A stretch of 64,000 bases of DNA, from assembly GCA_012976225.1 (NCBI GenBank), contig JAAVVG010000024.1, positions 248,001-312,000 of the forward strand, in the 5' to 3' direction. Both the position numbers and the translations under genes were made by a program. This stretch comes from Golubevia sp. BC0850. Lineage: Eukaryota; Basidiomycota; Exobasidiomycetes; Golubeviales; Golubeviaceae. This document shows positions 32,224-35,726 of the stretch, piece after piece (position 1 is the stretch's first letter; each line of letters opens with the position of its first letter). The notes beneath the pieces were generated by a model, which ran no database searches, was not told the DNA's origin, and worked only from the letters and a program-made list of their open reading frames with translations.

Positions 32224-35200
32224 TTAAACTGATTTCCATCCCTCCTTAGCCTCTTCCCATTCTCTAATGACTTGATCAGTCCCTTGTCTAAACAGCTCTT
32301 CCTCTTCAAAGAATCCAATGTCTTCCTTCTCTCCCTCCGGAATCAACAAAGCCACTCCATTCCCACCAACTCTGGTCTCATAACAATTGAAACCTTCATT
32401 TTCCAACCTAACTTTCAAAGATTCTAGATCTTTCTCTTCTAAATCATCCGGTAATAAAGTGACAGCACATCCTCCACCTCCAGCACCAGTCAACTTAGTA
32501 GACAGCTTCCTTCCAACCAAATGAGATTCAGTAGTATTCTTAATCAATTCCAAAGATGCATGAGAAACCTTTAGATCACTTAAATGTTGATGATTCTCCT
32601 TCATTAAAGTTGAAAGTTGACTTAACATCTCTTCTCTAGAGATTGTAGAAGAAGTTTCTTTACTCAACAACCTTTGAGCATGATCTGAAATCCTTTGAAT
32701 GTCTTTCATGATAGCTTCAACTCTTTCTGGTTCGTCAGTTAATTGCTTTCCAACACTTGCTACCAAAGTCTTGGTATCTCTACCTACTTTAGTGTTGGTT
32801 AACAAGAATCTGAAAGATTGGAACCCATTGAGGTTCTTCATTTCATTGTTCCTTAAGTTGTTAGAAGGATGAGCTCTGACGAAAGATAGAGCTCCACCAT
32901 GGACTGAAACTGAGTTGTCTACTCCAGATGGGTTTCCGTGGATGACCTTCTCGGAGAGGAAGGACCAAGAGTTGAGAATTTCGGAATGGCTTGAAGGAAG
33001 ATTCGAGTCTGAAGGCACTGAAAGGCGATTGAAGGAGTAGAGTAAAGCAGTTGAAATGCAGGAAGAGAGAGCGGCACTTGAACCGAGACCAGCTCCAATT
33101 GGAAGAGTGGACCGAAGGGTATAAGATTGACCAAGACTGAGGAGAGGGAAGGGGAAGAGAGGGGATCAGCAAGGCAGCGAGTCGACGGGAGGACGTGATG
33201 AGTGAGTACTTACGCATCGCCCTTTTCTCTAACAATAGTAAGGTAAAGGTACAGGAAGGCAACCGAGGCAGCATGGCTTCTTTCACTCTCATGAATAGTC
33301 TCTCTAACTCTCTTCTCGATCTCCTTGAGGAGGTTCTCATTCAGATCAGTAGGAGCTTTCCAGTCCCCACCTGCCTTCTGAGGAACGGCACCCCAAGGAA
33401 GATCATCCAATTTCCACTCATGTTCGACATCTAAATCGGGTAGAGCGATACTGATCTTTGAATCTTGACGAGGATTGACTAGAAGGTAGCAACGTAAAGC
33501 TACGGAAGCTGCAATGGCTTTAACACCGTGAACTACAGCATGTTCTCCGAAAAGGATGACCTTTCCAGGAGAAGAAACAAGTAAGGAGGTAGGAGCTGAA
33601 GAGATGCTTGAAAAAGCGATTCCAGCTACTACGCTCCCTACCCCTTCATCCCCAGTAGAATGGATCGTATTGTCAGGGTCTCCTCCTCTGGTTTGAGCCT
33701 TGCTAGTATCAGTTCCAGCATTGACATTGACGTTCTCGTTCAAAGGAACTCTCTCATATTGATCGAAAATGCTTGCTCCGTGAGTTTCTGAAAATTCCGA
33801 AAAGGCTGGTGAGAGAAGTGGGATTCCATCGTCCTCTGAAACTAGAGAAGTGGTGGAAGAATTGCTGATTTCTTTACGACGAATCGCTCCTGCTTTGAGT
33901 AAAGCTGATTCAAGATCTTCTAGGAGGTCCCGAGAATCTTCAATTCCTACACATAATCTGATGAGGTCTTCTGGCATGCCTCTTTCGGCTCTGACTTTTG
34001 GATCGATAGAAGCATGACTGATGAGGCAAGAGAGAAACGAAGAGTAAACGTTAGCTCTTGTAAACTGAATTAGACAGAAGTCTAGCTGGAAAGCAGTACT
34101 CACCTCATCAGACATGGCATACTGATCAAACTATTAACACATCCGAAAGAGACACTGATTCCCCAAAGTCTGGCAGCTCCAACGATCTTCTCACTGAGCT
34201 CTTTGTCGCCAGTGGTGAAACTGAGTACAGCTCCAGGTCCGGCAGCTTGAGAATCGTGAATTTCCTTCCCAGGATGAGAGTCCAAACCTGGGTAATGAAC
34301 CTTGAATCCTAGACGATCCAAGTAATCGGCGACCAACTGGGCTGAAGCTTGTTGACGATCCATACGAACAGCCAAAGTTTTGATTCCTCGTAGAAGAAGG
34401 AAGGAATCCATTGGAGTGAGAGCGTTCCCGACCGAGTTGATTGTGAAAGCGATTTGCTGGAGAAGGGGGTTGGACAGAAGAGGTGTCAGAAGCTGCGAAA
34501 GACCTTTCTCTCCTCTTTTCTCCTCATCTCAAACTTCTGTTGGCCGAAAATTAGAATTGGACACTCAGAATACCCTGCCGACCTTATCCCCATCATGTCG
34601 CCTTTCCCAGTCGAGCTCGCGGCTTATCATGACTCACCTTTCCGACGTCTTCTCTATCGCAGGCAACTACTCCAGCCATAAGATCGTGATGACCTGAAAG
34701 GTACTTGGTACCAGAGTCGTACACAATGTCTGCACCTAGTTCCAGAGGTCTCATGAGATAAGGAGACATCATAGTGTTGTCGCTATTGAGTGAGGGAGGG
34801 GAGGGTGGGAGGGTGAGCACTCGTCGATTAGAAGATGCGTCTCCTTCAAGAAATCAATGCTTTGAATTGGTCTGTGACAACTCCCAAAGACCTGACTGAG
34901 CCGAACTCGGTCTTCCCTTCCAATCTCCACATGGGAATCCTCCTTCCTCCAATACTACTCACACAACGATCAGAGCCTCCGGAGCCCACTTCTTTGCAGC
35001 CTCACAACATTTCCTTAAATCGATAATCTTGATAAGAGGATTGGTAGGACTTTCCAAAAGAACCATAGAGATCTTGCCGATCTTTGAATCGTTTTGATAC
35101 TCCTCATGTCTTTGTTTCAACAAAGCCTCTACTTTATCTGAATTAGTAGTATCAACATGATCAGTGATGATATCACCATGAGATTTCAAGAAGCCCAACA

Positions 35201-35726
35201 ATCTATTAGTACCACCATAAAGATCATCTCCAGCTAGAATTCTTTGACCAGGTTTAAGGATTCTAGTAATGACGTCCAAACAAGCCATCCCAGAAGAAAC
35301 AGCGAAAGAGTAATTACAGTTTTGTAATTGAGATAAATGATGTTGTAACATGGATCTGGTTGGATTCCCAGATCTTGAATAATCGAATTCACTTCCAGGT
35401 AAACCTTTGAAAGTTGCGGACATGTAAATTGGAGTTGAGGAAGAACCGTATTGATCTTTATGGTTGGGATCATCTACTGTTGAACAAATGGTTGAGAATC
35501 TATATCCCTTTGAACCACTTCTACGATCAAATCTTGATTGAGTCATACTCGGTGAATCAGTTCTGGTGTTGAGACTTCTCTCATCATCTTCTCCTTTCAA
35601 GGATGAGGCAACTGAAGTAGGATTGGATGATTCCACGTTGGAGTTGGGTGCAATTGTGCTATTGTTAGTTGAGGCAGTGGAGCTACTGCTAGCAGTTGAG
35701 ATTGTCGATCTGGCACCAAGTGTCAT
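32224..35726 (-). CDS. Cystathionine beta-lyase fused to mevalonate kinase
   Basis: One continuous reading frame joins two complete enzymes. Exons on the - strand: 35726-34963, 34782-34638, 34456-34104, 34017-33214, 33136-32224; 992 residues. Residues ~75-465 are a PLP-dependent cystathionine beta-lyase (Str3/MetC type): YMSATFKG, DYSRSGNPTR, AVSSGMACLDV, AGDDLYGGTNRLL, LLESPTNPLIKI, and the PLP lysine in SGTKYLSGH (Lys281), finishing with LIRLCVGIEDSRDLLEDLES. A Ser/Asn/Asp-rich linker of ~100 residues follows. From ~566 onward is a full mevalonate kinase (ATP:mevalonate 5-phosphotransferase of the isoprenoid pathway): SSPGKVILFGEHAVVHG, LPIGAGLGSSAAL, KLTGAGGGGCAVTLL. There is no stop between them, and no in-frame Met from residue ~435 until far into the kinase, so the kinase has no start of its own in this exon. 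The first ~70 residues are Ser/Thr-rich. Two genes spliced differently remain possible. Confidence 0.88.

What the first reader, a model, noticed from the sequence alone, without database searches (positions are those of the whole stretch)
32224..35726. Cystathionine beta-lyase and mevalonate kinase in one reading frame
Seen: a full lyase (PLP Lys281) and a full mevalonate kinase (three GHMP motifs) lie in one spliced frame. The ~100-residue linker is in the same exon (34017-33214) as the lyase C-terminus and kinase N-terminus, has no stop, and there is no in-frame Met from about residue 435 to the exon end, so the kinase lacks its own start there. Known: these are normally separate enzymes of methionine and isoprenoid synthesis. 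Inference: a bifunctional protein that could link methionine/SAM supply to sterol synthesis, or a fusion cleaved after translation. I do not know of a described fusion of this kind.
Basis: partly seen in the sequence, partly recalled or inferred. Interest (0 to 1): 0.85.

Follow-up and report, generated by a model that had tools for sequence, protein, structure and literature searches.

The report
Known basidiomycete metC-MVK fusion gene
One gene makes a single protein joining a methionine-pathway enzyme to a sterol-pathway enzyme; the join is real, but it was already described in 2012 as the usual arrangement in basidiomycete fungi, and its purpose is still unknown.

Summary
On the minus strand, 35726-32224, five exons splice into one 992-residue frame. 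Residues 87-464 pass the curated cut-off for eukaryotic cystathionine beta-lyase (525.3 vs 487.5 bits) and 570-916 that for mevalonate kinase (214.4 vs 163.05). The roughly 100-residue linker has no stop or Met and coding-like codon use.

This architecture is published. Liu et al. 2012 (PMC3342255) named it metC-MVK: found in 12 basidiomycetes, all they analysed except Laccaria bicolor, absent outside the group, and the only mevalonate kinase there. A search of 81 fungal genomes (PMC3468542) found it in all basidiomycetes examined except Postia placenta, with no stand-alone kinase. A mycelial unigene of Pleurocybella porrigens carries both domains (PMC3720577), and Lignosus rhinocerotis has a 918-residue copy (PMC4129116).

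So this is an ordinary member of a conserved basidiomycete fusion, probably the organism's only copy of both enzymes. What selects for it was undetermined in those papers; a methionine/SAM-sterol link is untested. The window's species, transcripts and remaining genome could not be examined.

The parts
34963..35726 (-). Exon 1: start codon, Ser/Thr-rich N-terminal tail (about residues 1-75) and N-terminal part of the lyase
   Evidence: first ATG after the upstream in-frame stop
34638..34782 (-). Exon 2: lyase, contains PLP-binding Lys281
34104..34456 (-). Exon 3: lyase C-terminal domain
33214..34017 (-). Exon 4: lyase C-terminus, linker and kinase N-terminus in one exon
   Evidence: no candidate intron inside by the criteria
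33585..33884 (-). Linker, residues 466-565: no stop, no Met, coding-like codon use, no Pfam match
32224..33136 (-). Exon 5: rest of mevalonate kinase, stop codon at its end
34783..34962 (-). Intron 1 (180 nt, GTGAGT...TAG)
34457..34637 (-). Intron 2 (181 nt, GTGAGT...CAG)
34018..34103 (-). Intron 3 (86 nt, GTGAGT...CAG); open in the kinase frame if retained
33137..33213 (-). Intron 4 (77 nt, GTAAGT...CAG)

Best explanation
This is the metC-MVK (STR3-mevalonate kinase) fusion gene of basidiomycetes. One spliced mRNA gives a 992-residue protein with an N-terminal cystathionine beta-lyase (cystathionine to homocysteine, pyruvate and ammonia), a flexible linker of about 100 residues, and a C-terminal mevalonate kinase (mevalonate to 5-phosphomevalonate). 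Shown here: the open frame, near-complete domains, expected active-site residues, coding-like linker. Shown by others in other species: the same domain order across basidiomycetes, no other mevalonate kinase in those genomes, and an assembled transcript with both domains in Pleurocybella. Inferred: that this copy is translated as one chain, that both halves are active and supply both steps in 1:1 ratio, that the lyase tetramer carries paired kinases (oligomeric states recalled), and a cytosolic place, since the lyase C-terminus is internal and the chain ends in KSV rather than the SKL of yeast Str3p.
For: Continuous spliced frame; both equivalog cut-offs passed; alignment to cystathionine beta-lyase 1ibj over residues 76-459 and to mevalonate kinases 1kvk/2r3v from their residue 6 to 379 of 395/396; Y116, R118, Y170, D256, K281, R441 and K573, S709, E751, D762 present (roles recalled); linker codon score as in coding DNA; no candidate intron inside exon 4. 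Literature: 12 basidiomycetes, all analysed except L. bicolor, mean length about 886 aa, only kinase and only best lyase hit in those genomes (PMC3342255, section 10); all basidiomycetes examined among 81 fungal genomes except Postia placenta, about 450 extra C-terminal residues (PMC3468542, passages and section 12); mycelial unigene with both domains (PMC3720577, section 10); 918-aa copy in Lignosus (PMC4129116, passages).
Against: No transcript or proteome of this species. ATGs at 33977 (Met435) and, with intron 3 retained, at 34115 are in frame with the kinase; of the few near-cognate codons scanned, TTG 33743 and ACG 33668 are closer to it, so an extra, shorter kinase is not excluded. Pfam GHMP_kinases_C is below its cut-off (18.9 vs 21). 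The chain is longer than the published copies (992 vs about 886 mean and 918). The two surveys name different exceptions (L. bicolor; P. placenta).
Confidence: 0.95

Rival explanations
1. The fusion mRNA is made, but an internally started mRNA also gives a kinase with a lyase remnant in front (Met435, or 34115 with intron 3 retained, or a near-cognate start in the linker).
For: In-frame ATGs at 33977 and 34115, TTG 33743 and ACG 33668; intron 3 has no stop in the kinase frame.
Against: ATG starts would carry 126-172 residues of lyase tail and linker; no independent evidence of an internal promoter.
Confidence: 0.06
2. Selected metabolic coupling: the fusion is kept because homocysteine/SAM supply (for sterol C-24 methylation and other methyl uses) must track sterol synthesis. 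This is a reading of purpose on top of the best explanation.
For: Conservation across basidiomycetes as the only mevalonate kinase means the join has been kept for long; pathway logic is recalled.
Against: No shared metabolite, so no channelling; a fusion that is the sole copy of two needed enzymes can be kept simply because splitting is hard. The papers leave the reason open. PMC3468542 says str3/metG/met-2 mutants of ascomycetes are rescued by methionine, but there the genes are separate.
Confidence: 0.25
3. Assembly or sequencing artefact joining two genes.
For: No reads were available; the window has no N, which says little.
Against: The same join, in the same order, is published for many basidiomycetes; the linker (286 of its 300 bases tested) has no match longer than 17 bases elsewhere in the window.
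Confidence: 0.01
4. The chain is made whole and then cut into two enzymes.
For: A linker of 75% disorder-prone residue types (my own residue set) against 62% and 64% in the domains; one RR pair at 467.
Against: No NPGP motif and no sign of a processing protease.
Confidence: 0.03

Closest known systems
metC-MVK / STR3-mevalonate kinase fusion of basidiomycetes (PMC3342255, PMC3468542, PMC3720577, PMC4129116)
   Same: Same two enzymes in the same order in one gene
   Different: Here 992 residues against a reported mean of about 886 and 918 in Lignosus. The 16-residue insertion reported in the kinase part of seven species could not be compared, as its letters are not in the text
Cystathionine beta-lyase, eukaryotic (TIGR01329; 1ibj; yeast Str3p)
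   Same: Residues 87-464 pass the curated cut-off, active-site residues kept
   Different: C-terminus continues into a linker and a kinase; no terminal SKL as in yeast Str3p (PMC9929924, passages)
Mevalonate kinase (TIGR00549; 1kvk, 2r3v)
   Same: Residues 570-916 pass the curated cut-off; alignment starts at residue 6 of those enzymes
   Different: No own start codon; N-terminus fused to a lyase
Spermidine synthase-saccharopine reductase fusion of basidiomycetes (PMC10051792)
   Same: Another join of two complete enzymes of different pathways in this group, found in 48 of 48 basidiomycetes examined there
   Different: Different enzymes

Membership tests
metC-MVK fusion of basidiomycetes | Cystathionine beta-lyase N-terminal and mevalonate kinase C-terminal in one frame | tested here: met
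metC-MVK fusion of basidiomycetes | Only mevalonate kinase and only cystathionine beta-lyase of the genome | not testable with these tools
   no genome held for the window; no second copy within the 64 kb (three other tblastn hits, E 0.81 or worse)
metC-MVK fusion of basidiomycetes | Host is a basidiomycete | tested here: inconclusive
   species not identified; HSP70 against solved structures did not place it; the architecture itself points to this group
metC-MVK fusion of basidiomycetes | Length near the published 886-918 residues | tested here: inconclusive
   992 residues; same scale, longer by about 75-105
metC-MVK fusion of basidiomycetes | 16-residue insertion in the kinase part (seven species only) | not tested
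   its sequence is in a figure that is not held
Cystathionine beta-lyase (TIGR01329) | Score above curated cut-off | tested here: met
   525.3 vs 487.5 bits; the other lyase/synthase models among the 25 of 50 families shown are below theirs
Cystathionine beta-lyase (TIGR01329) | PLP lysine and contacts | tested here: met
   K281, Y116, R118, Y170, D256, R441 (roles recalled)
Mevalonate kinase (TIGR00549) | Score above curated cut-off over the full model | tested here: met
   214.4 vs 163.05 bits, model 1-276 of 276
Mevalonate kinase (TIGR00549) | GHMP motifs and catalytic residues | tested here: met
   K573, S709, E751, D762, KLTGAGGGG at 903 (roles recalled)
Both enzymes | Catalytic activity | not testable with these tools
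   needs enzyme assays

The most novel reading that the evidence does not exclude
The long-kept fusion is a working coupling device: it ties homocysteine/methionine (hence SAM) production to mevalonate phosphorylation, with the lyase tetramer as scaffold for the kinase, giving basidiomycetes one control point for sterol carbon and sterol methyl groups. The fusion is known; this function would be new.
Probability: 0.2. Interest if true: 0.65.

Novelty: already known. Interest (0 to 1): 0.2.

Why it matters
As a finding it adds one more genome to a described basidiomycete fusion and supports placing the window in that group. The open question, raised in 2012 in the papers cited, is why an entire fungal phylum keeps its only mevalonate kinase tied to a methionine enzyme. 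An answer would bear on sterol and terpenoid control in mushrooms, yeasts and plant pathogens, and on metabolic models that expect two genes.

Tried and rejected
That was wrong: the Ganoderma paper stood at the top of two listings and I had not opened it. Opening the four papers listed, which hold both enzyme names, showed the fusion is published. Novelty, interest and odds were changed for that reason.

Relatives: the whole fusion against viral contigs gave none, against prokaryote contigs two bacterial lyase loci only (L001 and L002, not analysed further); conserved-peptide DNA patterns against viral contigs gave none. No fungal collection is on hand, so this says nothing.

Alternative kinase starts: exon 4 has three weak donors and no candidate intron (donor at least 5 of 6, pyrimidine tract at least 0.65, 45-300 nt). 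Of 14 ATGs between 34450 and the kinase, 77 spliced alternatives were listed mechanically, 15 printed and read, all 15 starting inside exon 3; the other 62 were not read, and ATGs upstream of 34450 were not examined. Poly(A)-type words were absent from the linker but also from the true 3' region, so that test decides nothing.

Taxon: HSP70 against solved structures (60 of 109 matches shown) did not place the species; Rfam and tRNA scans were empty. Structure prediction was not run.

Literature: ten searches. Listings were capped (15 of 21; 15 of 21; 20 of 68). The Leonard and Richards 2012 survey is not held. Passages of PMC6780508, PMC13412983, PMC10835275, PMC9925542 and PMC6695392 say nothing of this fusion.

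Full report
What is there. On the minus strand, 35726 down to 32224, five exons join into one frame of 2979 nt coding for 992 residues. The four introns are 180, 181, 86 and 77 nt, with GTRAGT donors, AG acceptors and a CTNAY-type word starting 33-37 bases before the 3' end, among other such words. The start at 35726 is the first ATG after the upstream in-frame stop, with A at -3. Upstream on the same strand lies an indoleamine 2,3-dioxygenase gene, whose stop-to-stop frame ends at 36284. Downstream, convergent, lies a small, apparently secreted protein gene ending near 32009 (read by eye).

The domains. NCBIfam puts residues 87-464 into eukaryotic cystathionine beta-lyase (TIGR01329, 525.3 bits, cut-off 487.5) and 570-916 into mevalonate kinase (TIGR00549, 214.4, cut-off 163.05, full model). 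Pfam gives Cys_Met_Meta_PP (86-460) and GHMP_kinases_N (686-770); a galactokinase signature is below its cut-off (19.2 vs 23.1), as is GHMP_kinases_C (18.9 vs 21). Best solved-structure matches are cystathionine beta-lyase 1ibj (E 2.9e-99, residues 76-459) and mevalonate kinases 1kvk and 2r3v (E 4e-71 and 2.9e-69, from their residue 6 to 379). Expected active-site residues are present (roles recalled).

Is the join real? The linker, residues 466-565 (33884-33585), sits inside exon 4 without a stop; 0.36% of 20,000 shuffles of 303 nt are stop-free. Its frame-0 codon score is 0.25 in one scheme (coding mean 0.21, sd 0.09; its other forward frames -0.44 and -0.63; off-frame training windows reached 0.44 at most, so one score alone is not proof) and 0.36 in another (coding mean 0.35, sd 0.12, n=81 training windows; best reverse frame of the linker 0.03; intergenic best -0.003 with 0 of 306 overlapping tests open). 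Exon 4 has no candidate intron by the criteria, and no Met lies between 435 and 788. In-frame ATGs at 33977 and 34115 (the latter with intron 3 retained) and the near-cognates TTG 33743 and ACG 33668 leave a shorter extra kinase possible.

It is already known. Liu et al. 2012, the Ganoderma lucidum genome (PMC3342255; passages and section 10; [quoted passage not shown] N-terminal cystathionine beta-lyase, C-terminal mevalonate kinase, average about 886 residues. It was the only homologue of mevalonate kinase and the only best hit for the lyase in those genomes; seven had a 16-residue insertion in the kinase part (the text says 7 of 12, the legend 7 of 13). The same year a rice blast paper (PMC3468542; passages and section 12) searched 81 fungal genomes and found the kinase as a C-terminal region of STR3 in all basidiomycetes examined except Postia placenta, never stand-alone there, and only stand-alone in ascomycetes, where the two genes do not appear clustered. 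PMC3720577 (section 10) found a mycelial unigene of Pleurocybella porrigens with both domains, and PMC4129116 (passages) a 918-residue copy in Lignosus rhinocerotis. The window's gene has the same two enzymes in the same order, so it is a member of this described fusion; its greater length was not resolved.

How it most likely works. One chain of 107.7 kDa with two independent active sites in 1:1 ratio joined by a flexible linker, most likely the organism's only source of both activities (inferred from the papers; not checked in this genome). The reactions share no metabolite, so any benefit would be co-production or scaffolding, not channelling. Yeast Str3p carries a C-terminal SKL (PMC9929924, passages); here the lyase C-terminus is internal, the chain ends in KSV, and the PTS2-like KVILFGEHA at 573 is internal and part of the kinase nucleotide loop (role recalled), so a cytosolic place is expected. 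Why the join is kept was undetermined in the passages I saw.

Limits. No genome is held, no fungal collection can be searched, the scans made gave no fungal relative, and the species was not identified.

Verdict. Observation confirmed; finding already known; low interest as a discovery, with an open functional question behind it.

Noticed in passing
36284-38778 (-): Indoleamine 2,3-dioxygenase gene, apparently in at least two exons: the main exon matches Pfam IDO at E 5.5e-98, the upstream ORF at 24.1 bits, just under the cut-off of 26.
   Followed up: partly
31171-32009 (+): Small, apparently secreted protein gene with several short introns (read by eye), convergent with the fusion and 214 bp from its stop; the one ORF tested has no Pfam match.
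   Followed up: no
34018-34130 (-): Intron 3 and the end of exon 3 are open in the kinase frame, with an ATG at 34115: a retained intron would end the lyase early but leave the kinase frame open.
   Followed up: partly
1702-3699 (+): HSP70 gene (Pfam E 7.3e-201) whose stop-to-stop frame seems to run past about 3021 into an intron, the last exon lying in another frame (read by eye).
   Followed up: no
21909-25088 (-) and 26976-28454 (+): Exocyst Sec8 and anaphase-promoting complex subunit 4 genes, ordinary eukaryotic neighbours.
   Followed up: no
literature, PMC3342255 and PMC3468542: The two surveys name different basidiomycetes without the fusion (Laccaria bicolor; Postia placenta), perhaps gene-model gaps.
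   Followed up: no
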